Shown: positions 11,120-16,822 of the stretch, in pieces
How positions within the stretch are numbered: the first letter of the stretch is position 1
Layout: every line of letters starts with the position of its first letter
Position numbers and translations under genes: made by a program
Source of the DNA: Holophagaceae bacterium
GTDB lineage: Bacteria > Acidobacteriota > Holophagae > Holophagales > Holophagaceae
DNA length: 34,628 bases
Assembly: GCA_025358435.1 (NCBI GenBank)
Contig: JANYJQ010000154.1
Span: 1 to 34,628, forward strand
Direction: 5' to 3'
Notes under the pieces: generated by a model
What the model was told of the DNA's origin: nothing
Database searches by the model: none
Seen by the model: the letters and a program-made list of their open reading frames with translations, nothing else

Positions 11120-11196
11120 GGTTCCTTAGCTCAGTTGGTTAGAGCAGCTGACTCTTAATCAGCGGGTCCAGGGTTCGAGTCCCTGAGGAACCACCA
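11120..11196 (+). tRNA. tRNA-Lys(CUU), also the integration target
   Basis: A 77-base cloverleaf: acceptor GGTTCCT/AGGAACC, D arm with AGTTGGTTAGA, anticodon stem GCTGA/TCAGC around the loop CTCTTAA (anticodon CTT), T arm CAGGG/CCCTG with loop TTCGAGT, and an encoded CCA. The 3' 46 bases are repeated at 16776-16822, which shows that an element has integrated here and kept the tRNA intact on the left side. Confidence 0.96.
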
Positions 11197-11197
11197 A
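11151..11197 (+). other. attL core: 47-bp direct repeat, left copy
   Basis: Positions 11151-11197, from the anticodon loop of tRNA-Lys to one base after CCA, match 16776-16822 at 46 of 47 positions. The one difference is C11181 versus T16806. It marks the left boundary of an integrated element of about 5.6 kb. Target duplication over the tRNA 3' half is the usual outcome of tyrosine-integrase insertion. Confidence 0.92.
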
Positions 11198-11213
11198 ACG
11201 ATGCAAGACTTAG

Positions 11214-11237
11214 GGCCACCCTCAAAGGTGGCCTTTT
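11214..11237 (+). terminator. Rho-independent terminator behind tRNA-Lys, supplied by the element
   Basis: GGCCACC (11214-11220), a 6-base loop and GGTGGCC (11227-11233) are followed by TTTT. It lies inside the element side of attL, so integration replaced the chromosomal terminator with this one. Confidence 0.8.
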
Positions 11238-11244
11238 GCGTTCA

Positions 11245-11262
11245 AGCTACTTCCCAGCTACC
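11245..11262 (+). repeat. Putative integrase arm-type sites, left end (AGCTAC x2)
   Basis: AGCTAC starts at 11245 and 11256, 11 bases apart, which is one helical turn. The same word recurs with similar phasing inside the right end (16638-16672). Repeats shared by both inner ends of an integrated element are typical of arm-type binding sites of tyrosine integrases or of excisionase sites; this is inference. Confidence 0.45.
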
Positions 11263-11359
11263 GATTCGGAATTCGTTAGGTGACGTAGAGCCAACGAGAA
11301 CCGGGATTTTTTGGGTCAACTAATTTACGGGCCAGATCGGATCGAATCCTTCATTTGGT

Positions 11360-11490
11360 TTTCCGAACATTTTCCGCTTCGTTCGGATTTCCGGTTTTTC
11401 CGGTATTTCCCACTTTGTTCGAACAATTGGTTTTTCCGGTTTTTCCCACTTTGTTTGAATCACCGTTTTTTCCGTTTTTTCAGGTTTTCG
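11360..11490 (+). repeat. T-rich repeat cluster with two 30-bp direct repeats
   Basis: This AT-rich stretch contrasts with its surroundings. Two 30-base units, 11395-11424 and 11431-11460, agree at 27 of 30 positions, each built as TTTTTCCGG, then TTTCCC, then ACTTTGTT. Several further TTTCCG words flank them, and TTGTTCGAACAA at 11415-11426 is a perfect 12-bp palindrome. Repeats of this kind upstream of an excisionase/rep cluster fit regulatory sites or replication iterons. No convincing gene lies here: the 85-codon frame at 11311-11568 is a low-complexity Phe/Arg translation of the repeats. Confidence 0.65.
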
Positions 11491-11496
11491 ATGTTT

Positions 11497-11525
11497 TTAA
11501 GTTTTATGAATACAATAATTATACT
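11497..11525 (+). promoter_or_regulatory. Candidate promoter of the element's xis-rep cluster
   Basis: A weak -35 TTAAGT (11497-11502), 17 bases, then a good -10 TATACT (11520-11525, 5 of 6 to TATAAT) in the AT-rich zone before the first element gene. It would leave a leader of about 235 bases that includes the hairpin at 11598-11636. Confidence 0.4.
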
Positions 11526-11597
11526 TGCATCAGCTCACCCTGAGACGTACCTTAAAATGCGTTATTAATTGATCTTTGAAACCCAAAAAACAACCCC

Positions 11598-11636
11598 GTC
11601 GTGATGGTGGCCTTGCGAACCAACATCCATCACGAC
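11598..11636 (+). repeat. Hairpin with 10-bp stem (GTCGTGATGG / CCATCACGAC)
   Basis: Perfect arms at 11598-11607 and 11627-11636 enclose a 19-base loop, in the leader of the excisionase-like gene. The GTCGTGA/TCACGAC core is shared with the larger hairpin downstream of rep (13650-13693) and with 12007-12013, which suggests one protein recognises all of them. Confidence 0.6.
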
Positions 11637-11767
11637 AGGGCGCCCACGCTGCCAAACGGCGGCGGGATAAGCCATTGTGTGGCCGATTCCCCCTCGCCGC
11701 AAGAACTGTGGGGAACCCCACGCGTCCGTTCATGGGCAGGGACGCGAATATTTTTTGGAGCGCCGTA

Positions 11768-11989
11768 ATGGAGGCCTCTTCCTCGGTACTACTAAACACT
11801 CGCCAAGCTGCGGAGATGTTGAACATCAGCCCTCAGACCCTCATGTACCTTCGCGTACAGGGAAACGGGCCCCTCTACGTGCGCCTCGGGCGCCGCATGA
11901 TCCGCTATCGCGATGAAGATCTTCTTGCCTGGATCGCCGCATCAGCCAGGAAGTCCACCTCTGATCCTGGCCCCGGTCTGCGTCCTTGA
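11768..11989 (+). CDS. Helix-turn-helix protein, AlpA/excisionase-like
   Basis: A 73-residue protein with the small MerR/AlpA-type winged-helix pattern: LLNTRQAAEMLNISPQTL for the helix-turn-helix, then a wing region (PLYVRLGRRMIRYRDEDL) and a closing helix. Such proteins bend DNA as excisionases or control integrase and replication genes on integrated elements. The open frame extends upstream to 11576, but those residues translate the hairpin and have no family character. ATG 11768 has GGAG at 11757-11760, 7 bases before it, and gives the normal size, so I chose it. It is the first gene of the element and probably shares a transcript with rep, 68 bases downstream. Confidence 0.82.
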   Translation: MEASSSVLLNTRQAAEMLNISPQTLMYLRVQGNGPLYVRLGRRMIRYRDEDLLAWIAASARKSTSDPGPGLRP

Positions 11990-12057
11990 CAGCTCGCTGA
12001 CGCGGTTCACGACTCTCTGAATCCTGGATTTTCGCCGGGACGCGTCGCCGTGCATTC

Positions 12058-13545
12058 ATGGCGCAATGCATAATCCATCCTTGTGTCGAGGGTGCCGCAA
12101 TCGATCCCAGAAATGGGTCTGATTTTGGCGGCCCCTCCGCTCCGCAATGTGAAAACAAGATCGGGTCTTGGACACTATTTGAAACGTCCGGAGGCCCTTT
12201 GGTTTTGGATTCCAGCACGGGGGAAGTGCTGGAAGCGCAGACTGCGGCCGTCAGTGCCTCTCGGGCTCGGGCTCATATGGCGAAGCGCCAAGCATCTGCA
12301 ATCGCCGAAGCTCTGGCGGGTGGAAAGATCCGGTTGGGGCACGATGATCAGGGCGAAGTCATTCTCTTGAACGCTGAAGGTGAGGAACTCCACGCAGCGC
12401 CTGGTGAAGGTGTTTTCATTCGGATGGCGGCCCTTCTTCTCCTTGAATCCGAGAGCACGTACAGCGCCGTTGGGAGCAAGGATGGGCGGGTCTTCGGGGT
12501 GGGTGGGTCAGGGTATGGCGCATCCATGAGATATGCCCCTGCCTACCAACGCCGCCTGAGCCGAAGGTCCCGCAAAGTTGCTCGGACAAATCTCCGAATT
12601 CTTCGCTGGCGCCTGAGTGCAGTCTGGTACGACTGGAAAGAGGCGGGCAAGGTGATGCCCGTCTTCTGGACCCTCACAACCCCAACGCTGGATCCTGGAA
12701 TCGTTGTTGGTGTGTGCGAGACGAAGGAGGAAGAACGCGCGTTCATGGCCTGGGAGTTGTTTCGTAAGCGGGATATCTTCGAAGATGCAGTCTTCGCGGG
12801 CTTTCGGGGATTCGAAGTCACTCGGAAGGTGTTATGGAATGGTGTGGTCTTGCATCACCCCCATTTCCATCTTCTGCTTTGGGCGCGATTCGCGATGCAG
12901 GCGAAATTAGCCAACGAATGGTGGGATTGCCTAAGGATTGCGACACTCAAAACCTACGCATTCGAACTGGCGGACCTCTATCCCGACCCGTGGCAGTTGG
13001 AGAACGCTGTGACGGCCTGCCTTCACGTTCAGGCCGTCAATGTGAATCCACGGAAAGGTGAGAATTCCATTTCTTTGGAAGACGCGATCCAGGAAACCCT
13101 GAAGTACACCACCAAGCCTGATGACATCGCCTGCTATGTGCCGGACCCAGACCGACCCGGTGAATGGATCGTAACCGGGCTCCCTCAGGCTTATCTGCAA
13201 GCGGGGATATCGGAGAGGAGCCCTCGGGTCTTCGAGTGCCTGGGGGCTGCCAGGAAGCACTGGAAGGCCCCGAAATGGTGCAAGGCGAAGGAAGGTGTCA
13301 CGGCGGATCTTCTGGCCGAAATGAGAGGTCTGTTTGTGCTACTCGCTATGAAGGAAAAGGGAGCACAAAAAAGGGCTGCTTGGGTATCGTCTTGGACCTC
13401 GGTTTGGGTGTCCATTGGGGTGCCTCATGAGAGCGAAATGGTGGTAATTGAGGCCCGCCTTTGGGGCTGCTTTTTAGCCCATGTTCGGATGGCCTTGTGG
13501 GTGCATGTTGAGGTCACAACATGGGCGATTGAGTTTCTTTCATAG
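12058..13545 (+). CDS. Rolling-circle replication initiator (HUH endonuclease, Rep_1/pUB110-like)
   Basis: A 495-residue protein carrying the three motifs of plasmid rolling-circle Rep proteins in order: motif 1 FWTLTTPT (203-210), motif 2 HHPHFHLLLW with the metal-binding His269-x-His271 (HUH), and motif 3 ETLKYTTK with the single catalytic Tyr350 and a conserved Lys353. Such enzymes nick a double-strand origin, attach covalently to the 5' end and drive rolling-circle synthesis. Residues 1-150 have no recognised domain, and the last 60 residues are Trp-rich and unlike the rest, so the C-terminus may have drifted after a frameshift. No clear ribosome site precedes ATG 12058; ATG 12277 (residue 74) is an alternative start. 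Carriage inside an integrated element implies an excised circle that can replicate. Confidence 0.85.
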   Translation: MAQCIIHPCVEGAAIDPRNGSDFGGPSAPQCENKIGSWTLFETSGGPLVLDSSTGEVLEAQTAAVSASRARAHMAKRQASAIAEALAGGKIRLGHDDQGEVILLNAEGEELHAAPGEGVFIRMAALLLLESESTYSAVGSKDGRVFGVGGSGYGASMRYAPAYQRRLSRRSRKVARTNLRILRWRLSAVWYDWKEAGKVMPVFWTLTTPTLDPGIVVGVCETKEEERAFMAWELFRKRDIFEDAVFAGFRGFEVTRKVLWNGVVLHHPHFHLLLWARFAMQAKLANEWWDCLRIATLKTYAFELADLYPDPWQLENAVTACLHVQAVNVNPRKGENSISLEDAIQETLKYTTKPDDIACYVPDPDRPGEWIVTGLPQAYLQAGISERSPRVFECLGAARKHWKAPKWCKAKEGVTADLLAEMRGLFVLLAMKEKGAQKRAAWVSSWTSVWVSIGVPHESEMVVIEARLWGCFLAHVRMALWVHVEVTTWAIEFLS

Positions 13546-13891
13546 GGCTTTTTTCTTCCTATCCCTGTCGGTGTTCGGGAGAAGACCTTCCCCTTTTTTT
13601 GGCAGTTCCAAGAGGGCTTGTCCCTCTTGAATTCATCCCTGCCGTCTGTCCCGGTCGTGAGCCTCCCCGAAGGAAAGGAGGTTCACGACCGGGCGAAGCG
13701 AGCGGCTTAATCTCTGCTTGCTTGTCCCAAGTGTGGGTCGGAATCTCCCACGGGCCAGGTGCTTTACAGAAGGCCGAAGGCCCTTGCCGTGACAGGCCCG
13801 CTTTTAGCCTGGCGCGGTTCTGGAACCTGGAGCCGAGGCGCATCCTCGGGATTTAGGGGCCGATGAATGGGCGCTTAAGAAAGCCGTTCCC
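13546..13891. other. 346-bp non-coding stretch between rep and fic
   Basis: Rep and fic converge here. The main content is the strong hairpin at 13650-13693. Smaller GC-rich inverted words occur near 13735-13800. An 85-codon frame (13599-13856) crosses the hairpin and shows no protein character, so I do not call it a gene. The stretch is a candidate for a single-strand or double-strand replication origin. Confidence 0.5.
13650..13693 (+). repeat. Strong hairpin downstream of rep, 17-bp stem, candidate replication origin
   Basis: Arms 13650-13666 (CCCGGTCGTGAGCCTCC) and 13677-13693 pair at 16 of 17 positions plus one G-T, around a 10-base loop. No T-run follows, so it is not a standard terminator. 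The right arm contains GGTTCACGAC, which also occurs at 12004-12013 just before rep. A structure of this strength next to a rolling-circle rep suggests an origin; whether dso or sso cannot be told. Confidence 0.6.
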
Positions 13892-15286
13892 TCAATCGCC
13901 CTTGATGAGCCGGGCTTGGGTTTCCCTCCATCGCTCGAATTCCGAGGGCCTGAGGCCGTAACGGGCGAAAGTGCCCTCGTTCAGGTTCTTCAATTCCTGT
14001 AGGACAACGGCGTGGAAACGGGACTGGTCGCTTGCGGGAATGTGCTTCGCAATGTCGAGTGCTATGCGCTCAAGCATTGGCCCTCCCGGACGCACCTTCG
14101 ATTTCACCAGCTCGCGGACCAACTCCCTGATCGCGTTTCTGTACTGGAGGCGGAAGGGATCGGGTTCGCCCAGGGACTGACGAATTGCTTGGTAGTGCTC
14201 AGCGGAACGCTGGTAGGCCCAAAGAAAAACATCCCGCAGAGCCTCGATCCGGCGCAGTTCATAGACCCCCAAAATCGCCATGGTGTAGGTCTCCTGGGGG
14301 AGATCCTTGAAGGATAGGGGCTGGAGATTGTGCTTCATCAAGGGCAGGTTCGCCGCCAACCGAGAGGTGCGCTTATTCGCATCTGCGAAGGGTTGGAGAT
14401 AGGGGATGTGGACGAGCAGGAAGAAAGCCTGCTCAAAGGGATCTTGGATGGCCGAGGCGGTCACCAATAGCTGCTCGAAGATTTCTTCGATGAGGGATGG
14501 GACGGCAAGTGGGATGTACGTGCTTTCGTGGATTCCCACTCCGAATTGCCGGAGGCGGCCTTCGTCCGCGGGATTCGAGAGAAGGTTTTCCGACAGCATC
14601 CCGTGAAGGGTTCGAACCATTCCTGGTGAGAGAGTCAGTTCGCCCGCGCCTTCCACCAGGTACTCGATGGTCTGCTTGTGGTTCAGGATCATCTGGGTTT
14701 CGCGGGCGTTCCGCCCTTCCGCCGCCGCGCCTTCTTTGAATAGCCGCTCGGTGTCCAGCAGGGAATAAGTGTTGCCTTCCAACCGGCTGGAATTCCAAGA
14801 GAGGTCAATGAGCAGGCGCTCCAGGATCTGCCGCGCGTAGGTTCCTGCTGGCGCCTGGGCGTCGGGTGTGCCTCCTAGGTTTTGCAAGGATGCCCGGTCC
14901 TTCTCCCGAAGATAGAACGTTTGATTGGGGCGATAGGCATCAAGAAATTCTCGTTCGTAGCTGCATGGCTTACGCATGGCTATGGGGCGATTGACCTGCC
15001 CGATGACCTCCGTGGCTTCAGGAGAGAAATCCCACTCCCAGATCCTTAGGGACACGTTGGACACGCCCGGCAAGCCGGGGAAGTAGCGCTTAGCCCGGGT
15101 GATCCCCTCCCCGCGAATCTGGCCTTTGGCTTCCATGGCTTTCAGGACCCGGCGAAAACGGAAGGGCTCCTCCTTCGCTCGTCCGACACCCACCTGGAGG
15201 TCTTCCCTGGACAGCCCTTCTGGATGCTTGGCCAGGACCGCGAGGATCTCCACATTGGGGTCTTTCACTGGGGTCCTTTTGGGCAC
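13892..15286 (-). CDS. Fic-family protein with N-terminal winged-helix-like region and altered active site
   Basis: A 464-residue protein. Residues about 1-70 look like a winged helix (ILAVLAKHPEGLSREDLQVG). The Fic core spans about 145-345 and has the inhibitory motif SSRLEGN (Ser166 to Glu170-Gly171), which in Fic proteins blocks ATP binding. The Fic loop reads LQPFADANKRTSRL instead of HPFxxGNxRxxR: Gln298 stands where the catalytic His should be. Most Fic enzymes AMPylate protein hydroxyls, so this one is probably inactive for that or does another reaction; related sequences with QPF loops exist as a family. The start is GTG 15286 with AGGTGA 4-5 bases before it. Five 11-bp repeats lie directly upstream and suggest self-regulation through the winged helix. 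It is the element's only obvious cargo. Confidence 0.85.
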   Translation of the reverse strand: MPKRTPVKDPNVEILAVLAKHPEGLSREDLQVGVGRAKEEPFRFRRVLKAMEAKGQIRGEGITRAKRYFPGLPGVSNVSLRIWEWDFSPEATEVIGQVNRPIAMRKPCSYEREFLDAYRPNQTFYLREKDRASLQNLGGTPDAQAPAGTYARQILERLLIDLSWNSSRLEGNTYSLLDTERLFKEGAAAEGRNARETQMILNHKQTIEYLVEGAGELTLSPGMVRTLHGMLSENLLSNPADEGRLRQFGVGIHESTYIPLAVPSLIEEIFEQLLVTASAIQDPFEQAFFLLVHIPYLQPFADANKRTSRLAANLPLMKHNLQPLSFKDLPQETYTMAILGVYELRRIEALRDVFLWAYQRSAEHYQAIRQSLGEPDPFRLQYRNAIRELVRELVKSKVRPGGPMLERIALDIAKHIPASDQSRFHAVVLQELKNLNEGTFARYGLRPSEFERWRETQARLIKGD

Positions 15287-15324
15287 GGTTCACCTGAGGG
15301 AGGAGCGTTTGAATCATTCTAATT

Positions 15325-15382
15325 CAGTTTCAAACTGTTTCAAACAGATTTCAAACATATTTCAAGCAGATTTCGAGCATAA
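15325..15382 (-). repeat. Five tandem 11-bp repeats (TTTCAAACAKA) upstream of fic
   Basis: Units start at 15328, 15338, 15349, 15360 and 15371, i.e. 10-11 bases apart, so all face the same side of the helix. The first two form overlapping 13-bp palindromes, CAGTTTCAAACTG (15325-15337) and CTGTTTCAAACAG (15335-15347). Later units diverge (TTTCAAGCAGA, TTTCGAGCATA). They sit 40-95 bases before the fic start and behind the integrase stop, which is the place for an operator or an iteron cluster. Spacers are absent, so this is not a CRISPR array. Confidence 0.8.
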
Positions 15383-15411
15383 TTCAAATATTTCGATCCC
15401 TCCTGCGATTC

Positions 15412-16611
15412 CTATTTCTCCTCGTCATCCGTGGATTGGAGGGCGGTTTCCAGTGCCTTCCCAATCGTATTATTGGCATCGTGAAGTGCCCCCTGTGAGA
15501 GGTGGGCATATCGCTGGGTTGTGCTCGATTGGGTGTGCCCCAAGAGGCCACCTACCGCTGGAAGATTCAATCCATTGAGCACTCCGACACTGGCAAAGGT
15601 ATGGCGCAAATCATGGACACGCAAATCAGGGAGTTTGGCTTTGGTGCGGATGATTTCCCAGGGGTCTTTGAGATTTCCAAGCTGTTTTCCTTCGAGTGAA
15701 CCAGTGATGACGTGGGGGTTCCCTTTGGACCGGGGCAGGTGGCGCAGGACCTCCAACGCGAGGTCGTTCAAAAGGATGTTTTTGGCCCCGGTCTTGGATG
15801 CCGCTTCGGGGAGACGAATCACCCCTCGATCAAGGTCAACCCATGCCCATTTGAGGTTCAATATCTCTTGATGACGTGCGCCGGTGAACAGCAAGAGACG
15901 GATTGCGGCAATGACGAATGGGGATTCTTCGTTATCACGTTCAAGTTGCTCCAACACTTTTCCAAGACGGGCGATTTCCTTGGGGTTTAGGAAGCGTTCA
16001 CGTTTGTTTTCTTTGAAGCCCCGGAACCGGAAACAGGGGTTTGATTGAAGAGGGCGGAACCCCCATTCCTCCGCAAGGCTGAGGATTTTAGAAAGCACCC
16101 GAATCATGAGATTGGCTTGACGCGGTGTGCGGGCCATGGAGTGGTGAAGCTTTGAAATAGCGGCCCGGTCCACGTCTTGCACAAGGATGTCCCCAAGGGC
16201 TGGAACGATGAATTTTTCCGTAAGGCTCTTGTACATGCGGGCCGTGCTGGCGCGAACGTGGGTGGCGACGTATTCCTCTATGAATTGGTCTGCTAGTTTC
16301 TGCATGGTCGGTGCGGTTTTGCGGGCGTGGAGGATAGCCATGGGGTCTTGGCCCTCGGCCACGACGCCTCTGAATCGGTAGGCCTTCAGGCGGGCCTCGT
16401 CCACGGTGATTTCACCGAATCGGCCCAGAGTGGCCCAGCGCTGGCGGCCATGGAATCGGTATTTCAAGGTGAAGACTTTGAGACCGGATGGCCACACGCG
16501 CATTCCGAAACCTGGGATTTCTTCGTCCCACAAGGAGTACTCTCGGTCCCGTGGTTCCAGCATGTCGATGAGTTTCTTGGTGATCTTCACGACGCCGGTT
16601 CTTTGCACCAT
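15412..16611 (-). CDS. Tyrosine recombinase/integrase of the element (P4-like)
   Basis: A 399-residue integrase with an N-terminal DUF4102-like arm-binding domain (SLWDEEIPGFGMRVWPSG), a SAM-like core-binding domain at about 100-185, and a complete catalytic domain. The residues are Arg246 (TGARHQEI), a Lys in SKTGAKN (273/277), His333-x-x-Arg336 (HDLRHTFAS), His359 (LLGHTQSS) and nucleophile Tyr368 (TTQRYAHL). Enzymes of this group insert elements into tRNA 3' ends, exactly what is seen here: the gene starts 165 bases inside attR. The ATG at 16611 has a G-rich ribosome site 2-3 bases before it. It is intact, so the element should be able to excise, given an excisionase. Confidence 0.95.
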   Translation of the reverse strand: MVQRTGVVKITKKLIDMLEPRDREYSLWDEEIPGFGMRVWPSGLKVFTLKYRFHGRQRWATLGRFGEITVDEARLKAYRFRGVVAEGQDPMAILHARKTAPTMQKLADQFIEEYVATHVRASTARMYKSLTEKFIVPALGDILVQDVDRAAISKLHHSMARTPRQANLMIRVLSKILSLAEEWGFRPLQSNPCFRFRGFKENKRERFLNPKEIARLGKVLEQLERDNEESPFVIAAIRLLLFTGARHQEILNLKWAWVDLDRGVIRLPEAASKTGAKNILLNDLALEVLRHLPRSKGNPHVITGSLEGKQLGNLKDPWEIIRTKAKLPDLRVHDLRHTFASVGVLNGLNLPAVGGLLGHTQSSTTQRYAHLSQGALHDANNTIGKALETALQSTDDEEK

Positions 16612-16634
16612 ATCCCCCTTGCGAAACTGGCCAA

Positions 16635-16673
16635 GATAGCTACCATGAAGCTATTGATAGCTACCAGCTACCA
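16635..16673 (+). repeat. Putative integrase arm-type sites, right end (AGCTAC/T x4)
   Basis: AGCTAC words start at 16638, 16659 and 16666, and AGCTAT at 16649, giving 11-, 10- and 7-base steps. GATAGCTACCA occurs twice (16635 and 16656). The cluster lies between the integrase start and attR, matches the words at 11245-11262 inside attL, and could also act as the integrase operator. Confidence 0.5.
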
Positions 16674-16775
16674 TAATCTTGCCAGGTTCACCTTCCAAGA
16701 TAGAATCATTGAAAAGCCTCATCAATACTGGTATCTAACGATTGCATCGCTAGGCACGCCCCTGATCAAATATTA

Positions 16776-16822
16776 ACTCTTAATCAGCGGGTCCAGGGTT
16801 CGAGTTCCTGAGGAACCACCAA
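16776..16822 (+). other. attR core: 47-bp direct repeat, right copy
   Basis: A 3' copy of tRNA-Lys from the anticodon loop to CCA, 46/47 identical to 11151-11197. It lacks the 5' half, so it is not a tRNA gene. It marks the right end of the element; the chromosome resumes behind it with the original tRNA terminator. Confidence 0.92.

What the first reader, a model, noticed from the sequence alone, without database searches (positions are those of the whole stretch)
11151..16822. A 5.6-kb self-contained integrative element in tRNA-Lys with a rolling-circle Rep and a Fic cargo
The tRNA 3' end is repeated as a 47-bp direct repeat (46/47) that encloses an intact tyrosine integrase, an excisionase-like HTH gene, an HUH Rep with all three motifs, and a Fic-family protein. 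No capsid, relaxase or conjugation gene is present. Actinobacterial AICEs combine Int, Xis and Rep at tRNA genes but also carry an FtsK-like transfer protein. A minimal Int-Xis-Rep-Fic unit in a non-actinobacterial genome would be a distinct class of element, possibly a plasmid/satellite hybrid moved by a helper.
Basis: partly seen in the sequence, partly recalled or inferred. Interest (0 to 1): 0.8.

Follow-up and report, generated by a model that had tools for sequence, protein, structure and literature searches.

The report
Small tRNA-inserted mobile element with Rep
A bacterium of the family Holophagaceae carries a complete 5.6-kb mobile DNA element in a tRNA-lysine gene that has its own integrase, excision-type regulator, rolling-circle replication protein and a Fic-like cargo gene; the same compact plan recurs with other cargo in related bacteria, so it is a real element but a variant of a known kind rather than a new class.

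Summary
The 3' part of tRNA-Lys(CTT) is repeated 46/47 at 11151-11197 and 16776-16822 around an HTH_17/Xis-like gene, a Rep_1-type rolling-circle Rep with HUH and Tyr motifs, a Fic-family gene and a tyrosine integrase. A same-genus genome holds the empty site (84% identity across the junction); another holds a different, phage-like element at the same tRNA.

The plan recurs: six delimited elements in two Acidobacteriota families combine Int, a small HTH gene and Rep_1 at the 3' ends of tRNA-Lys, -Thr, -Glu, -Pro, -Met and -Ser. They are 5.6-12.6 kb with cargo mostly R-M or candidate defence genes, and no conjugation gene was seen. The closest Rep homologue (53%) sits instead in a 23-kb element with a coupling protein.

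It is not an AICE (no FtsK-type Tra). But tRNA-inserted 5-18 kb elements with an RCR initiator and no coupling protein are described in streptococci, so this is a new variant of a known kind.

Most likely: Int/Xis excise a 5,625-bp circle and Rep replicates it; spread needs a helper. Helper and transfer route are unproven; VirB4-type genes are nearly absent in 77 relatives.

By-product: a covarying ~270-nt structured noncoding module (13563-13861).

The parts
11120..11196 (+). tRNA-Lys (CTT), the insertion target; its 3' part is attL
   Evidence: ARAGORN; Rfam
11151..11197 (+). attL, 47-bp direct repeat
   Evidence: junction confirmed by empty attB in G004
11214..11237 (+). hairpin plus T-run just inside attL, likely a new terminator for the tRNA supplied by the element; similar hairpins at the same place in the tRNA-Thr elements of G034 and G013
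   Evidence: sequence
11245..11261 (+). two AGCTAC motifs 11 bp apart, candidate integrase arm-type sites; the same pair 92-106 nt from the att start in G034 and G013 elements
11768..11989 (+). HTH_17 / excisionase-like gene (start codon inferred)
12058..13545 (+). Rep_1-like rolling-circle initiator, 495 aa; HUH H267/H269, Tyr350
   Evidence: relatives
13563..13861 (+). conserved structured noncoding module (core 13636-13825; main hairpin 13644-13693), function unknown
13892..15286 (-). Fic-family cargo gene, 464 aa; motif QPFADANKRTSR, Gln where catalytic His is usual
15412..16611 (-). tyrosine integrase, 399 aa, Arm-DNA-bind_3 + Phage_integrase
16638..16671 (+). three AGCTAC motifs between int and attR, candidate arm-type sites
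16776..16822 (+). attR, 46/47 identical to attL

Best explanation
A small integrative element that lives in the chromosome at the 3' end of tRNA-Lys. Int with the Xis-like HTH protein excises a 5,625-bp circle (inferred from anatomy), in which int and xis-rep are divergently arranged about attP. Rep nicks a double-strand origin and drives rolling-circle replication of the excised circle (inferred from family). Horizontal spread depends on another element; the likeliest route is conjugative mobilisation with Rep acting as the relaxase at its own nick site, as shown for pC194/pUB110-type Reps with ICEBs1 (inferred, helper unknown). Cargo (here a Fic-like protein) is swapped between relatives and is mostly restriction or candidate defence genes.
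For: Direct repeat and gene set. Empty attB in G004. Same layout at tRNA-Thr in complete genome G034 with a perfect 47-bp repeat, Int 51% identical, HTH_17 and Rep_1 at 53.6 bits. Same Int/HTH/Rep_1 set at tRNA-Glu, -Pro, -Met, -Ser in other Acidobacteriota, three of them with a serine resolvase gene by reading, which suits a circular replicating state. Shared AGCTAC sites at both ends of three elements. Rep_1 proteins of plasmids lacking mob genes act as relaxases for ICEBs1 (PMC5714925).
Against: Excision, replication and transfer were not observed; no attP junction was found in the viral collection. Rep scores just under the Pfam cut-off, and an AlphaFold model was poor (mean pLDDT 48.8) with no HUH match in Foldseek. 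VirB4-type genes are nearly absent in 77 Holophagaceae genomes: PF03135 in 0, P-loop_TraG over cut-off in 1, so a conjugative helper is not evident. The C-terminal part of Rep after residue ~425 aligns poorly with its relatives.
Confidence: 0.62

Rival explanations
1. Phage satellite: the circle is replicated by Rep and packaged in a helper phage's capsids.
For: Compact size; the same tRNA-Lys in G003 carries a phage-like element with its own integrase (gene functions by reading); almost no VirB4-type gene in the family.
Against: No packaging, capsid-remodelling or helper-interference gene among the four genes; no relative of the Rep among 50,697 phage records or IMG/VR; 5.6 kb is at the lower edge of the usual 6-18 kb for satellites (PMC11389934).
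Confidence: 0.15
2. Decayed remnant of a larger conjugative element like the 23-kb one in G053, stripped of its transfer genes and now immobile.
For: Closest Rep homologue (53%) lies beside a coupling protein in G053; attR has one mismatch to attL.
Against: The G053 element has a different integrase and target; Int, Xis, Rep and Fic frames are open; relatives that share the integrase are equally compact, one with perfect repeats.
Confidence: 0.15
3. An integrated RCR plasmid maintained mainly vertically, moved by transformation or other general routes with no dedicated helper.
For: No transfer gene or recognised oriT; scattered distribution (2 of 100 relatives with this Rep).
Against: Recurrence of the same plan at many tRNA genes in two families suggests efficient spread.
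Confidence: 0.08

Closest known systems
Streptococcal non-canonical IMEs with RCR-initiator-type relaxases (PMC5357655, PMC5704250)
   Same: 5-18 kb, tyrosine integrase, 3' end of tRNA genes including tRNA-Lys, RCR initiator, often no coupling protein, no T4SS
   Different: Those use Rep_trans/MobT, Rep_2, PHA00330 or Viral_Rep; here Rep_1 (PF01446); host is Acidobacteriota; no helper ICE known
AICEs such as pSAM2 (PMC3218068)
   Same: Int, Xis, RCR Rep at a tRNA gene
   Different: No FtsK/SpoIIIE-type Tra; not actinobacterial; smaller
Cryptic integrated element NitAQ6f-E2 of Thaumarchaeota (PMC6563490)
   Same: integrated element with an RCR endonuclease and no capsid or conjugation genes
   Different: Archaeal host; Rep homologous to SNJ1 and euryarchaeal plasmid proteins, not Rep_1
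23-kb element at ubiA of genome G053 (this work)
   Same: Rep 53% identical, HTH gene upstream of rep
   Different: Different integrase and target; coupling protein and a relaxase-like gene present

Membership tests
Integrative element (tyrosine-recombinase type) | Integrase next to one of two att repeats and an empty site in a relative | tested here: met
AICE | Int, Rep and an FtsK/SpoIIIE-type Tra protein together | tested here: not met
   No FtsK-like gene between the repeats; definition from PMC3218068
IME (non-canonical, RCR-initiator type) | Own integrase, no T4SS genes | tested here: met
IME (non-canonical, RCR-initiator type) | Relaxase or RCR initiator able to start transfer at an oriT | tested here: inconclusive
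   Rep_1-like HUH protein present; transfer activity and oriT not shown
IME (non-canonical, RCR-initiator type) | Mobilised by a conjugative helper | not testable with these tools
   Helper genes scarce in the family; the own genome is only 76% complete
Rep_1 (PF01446) RCR initiators | Match at or above the curated cut-off | tested here: not met
   29.7 bits against 33.2; the G034 counterpart reaches 53.6
Rep_1 (PF01446) RCR initiators | HUH motif and catalytic Tyr conserved | tested here: met
   H267, H269, Y350 invariant in 4 sequences
Phage satellite (PICI, P4-like) | Packaging or helper-hijacking genes | tested here: not met
   None by Pfam or PHROGs

The most novel reading that the evidence does not exclude
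A phylum-wide family of tRNA-inserted Int-Xis-Rep_1 defence-carrying elements in Acidobacteriota that spreads although its host family almost lacks conjugation ATPases, perhaps through a non-conjugative helper, and that shares a covarying ~270-nt folded module with unrelated mobile loci as a common single-strand origin or recombination site.
Probability: 0.15. Interest if true: 0.72.

Novelty: new variant of a known kind. Interest (0 to 1): 0.45.

Why it matters
It shows that compact integrative elements with rolling-circle Reps, known mainly from Firmicutes, actinobacteria and archaea, also serve as carriers of restriction and candidate defence genes in Acidobacteriota, whose mobilome is hardly described. 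Because VirB4-type genes are scarce there, how such elements spread becomes a testable question. The accompanying structured noncoding module has no Rfam match.

Tried and rejected
Relatives of the Rep in plasmids, phages and IMG/VR: none. Single-protein scan of genome contigs: none; an alignment scan gave three Acidobacteriota loci. PDB sequence search with the Rep: none. AlphaFold model of Rep with a 4-row alignment: poor, and the Foldseek hits (CutA1, HMG-CoA reductase) are not meaningful. Search for the excised attP junction in viral contigs: none. The hairpin downstream of rep was first taken for this element's own origin; rejected as element-specific because a covariance model finds the module in many other loci. 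Literature searches for Acidobacteria elements of this type: no paper found.

Full report
What is there. The window is contig C180 of a 2.4-Mb, 211-contig genome estimated 76% complete. Its family is Holophagaceae: relative G112 contains a contig of the same length (43,878) as the GenBank record titled 'uncultured Holophagaceae bacterium' that matched the Rep. tRNA-Lys(CTT) lies at 11120-11196, and its 3' 47 bp recur 46/47 at 16776-16822. Between the copies lie an HTH_17/Xis-like gene, a 495-aa Rep, a convergent Fic-family gene and a tyrosine integrase next to attR.

The boundaries are real. In same-genus genome G004 the same trpS-tRNA-Lys segment runs directly into sequence matching the window beyond 16822, 533/631 identical over the joined flanks. 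In G003 the same tRNA is occupied by a different element whose genes read like a tailed prophage and which has its own integrase, so the tRNA is a shared target. The Rep gene is single copy in the own genome.

The Rep. It matches Rep_1 at E 5.5e-7, slightly under the curated cut-off. Homologues were found only in Acidobacteriota: G053 (53% over 411 aa), G112 (41%), and G102/G192 (about 31%). Across four of them HUH residues H267/H269 and Y350 are invariant. A structure model was too poor to add support. None was found in the plasmid, phage or IMG/VR collections.

The same plan elsewhere. The best integrase homologue (51%, G034, complete genome) lies in a 6.9-kb element with a perfect 47-bp repeat at tRNA-Thr(CGT): HTH_17, Rep_1 (53.6 bits), response regulator, histidine kinase, Mrr-type nuclease, Int. 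In G013 an integrase of the same family (49%) bounds an 8.9-kb element with a tRNA-Thr-type repeat and an HTH gene, but a different gene in place of Rep_1. All three elements have paired AGCTAC motifs 11 bp apart at 90-106 nt from the left att start and one to three more between int and attR, plus a hairpin that can act as a new terminator right after the tRNA. AGCTAC is enriched in the window as a whole (16 found, 4.4 expected), so the argument rests on the conserved positions.

A Pfam Rep_1 search over the family and phylum with flanks gave four more delimited elements: G100 tRNA-Glu, ~12.6 kb, type III R-M; G411 tRNA-Pro, 47-bp repeat, ~11.4 kb, Mrr/nSTAND protein; G211 tRNA-Met, 45-bp repeat, ~7 kb, methyltransferase and type II REase; G287 tRNA-Ser, 21-bp repeat, ~7.7 kb, candidate defence gene. 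Each has a tyrosine integrase and a small HTH gene near rep; the HTH assignment for these four, and the integrase assignment for G411, G211 and G287, rest on reading and weak BLAST matches. G411, G211 and G287 also carry a gene that reads as a serine resolvase. No conjugation gene was recognised in them, by reading and by the domains tested. G411, G211 and G287 belong to another family (f10) of the phylum.

Larger kin. The closest Rep homologue, in G053, lies in a ~23-kb element bounded by an exact 21-bp repeat at the start of a ubiA-like gene, with a different integrase, a LexA-like regulator, a VirD4/TrwB-type coupling protein (E 1.3e-15) and a protein that looks like a relaxase by reading but has no Pfam match. 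So this Rep type serves larger, probably mobilisable elements too, and integrase, rep and cargo modules are reshuffled.

How it likely works. Shown: the anatomy, the empty site, and recurrence with varied cargo. Inferred: Int/Xis excision to a 5,625-bp circle; rolling-circle replication by Rep; helper-dependent transfer. Rep_1 Reps of pC194, pUB110 and pTA1060-type plasmids act as relaxases when ICEBs1 supplies coupling protein and T4SS (PMC5714925), which makes Rep the natural candidate for transfer initiation. Against easy conjugation, VirB4-type proteins are nearly missing from 77 Holophagaceae genomes, although a coupling protein exists in G053. A phage helper is possible but has no positive evidence.

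Cargo. The Fic-family protein belongs to a subfamily found on alphaproteobacterial and other plasmids (listed matches 41-58% identity) in which the usual catalytic His of the Fic motif is Gln in all four sequences compared, so AMPylation cannot be assumed. PADLOC lists matches to PDC-S04 (E 2.7e-16) and SoFic (E 1.4e-10).

A conserved structured module. Downstream of rep, window 13563-13861 shares hairpins and flanks with the G034 and G013 elements and with two further loci. A covariance model built from five copies finds about 33 places at E<1e-8 in about 24 of 77 genomes. On an independent MAFFT alignment of 24 copies the main stem shows 5-12 both-sided changes at each of pairs 184/218 to 188/214 with few breaks. 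Neighbours include genes that read as RHS-repeat proteins, XerC-like recombinases, a primase-like CHC2/Toprim protein and a Rep. Rfam has no match above its gathering score. It is not specific to this element; a single-strand origin, recombination site or RNA all remain open.

Verdict. Real, well delimited, and one of a recurring set in Acidobacteriota; a new variant of RCR-initiator integrative mobilisable elements rather than a distinct class.

Noticed in passing
window 13563-13861; L018 4310-4620; L098 7415-7715; L099 9690-9985; L132-L151: Covarying ~270-nt structured noncoding module present in about a third of Holophagaceae genomes, often 3' of RHS-like genes or near recombinases; not in Rfam.
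   Followed up: partly
window 13892-15286: Fic-family subfamily with Gln in place of the catalytic His (LQPF.D.NKR..R), conserved in plasmid-borne homologues.
   Followed up: partly
L064 and L065 (G003 contigs C88 and C3): The same tRNA-Lys is occupied by a different, prophage-like element whose left end resembles that of the window element (CAAGACTTAGG.CCACCCTCAAA.GTGG).
   Followed up: partly
L037, L038, L040, L075, L086, L087: Rep_1 genes in groups of many short genes without PHROG matches apart from one terminase-like ATPase in L087; possibly unknown tailless proviruses.
   Followed up: partly
L044, L047, L098, L099: Recurring pair of XerC-like recombinase and large CHC2/Toprim primase-like protein, in L044 and L047 with a serine recombinase and a nearby Rep_1; a possible separate element type.
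   Followed up: no
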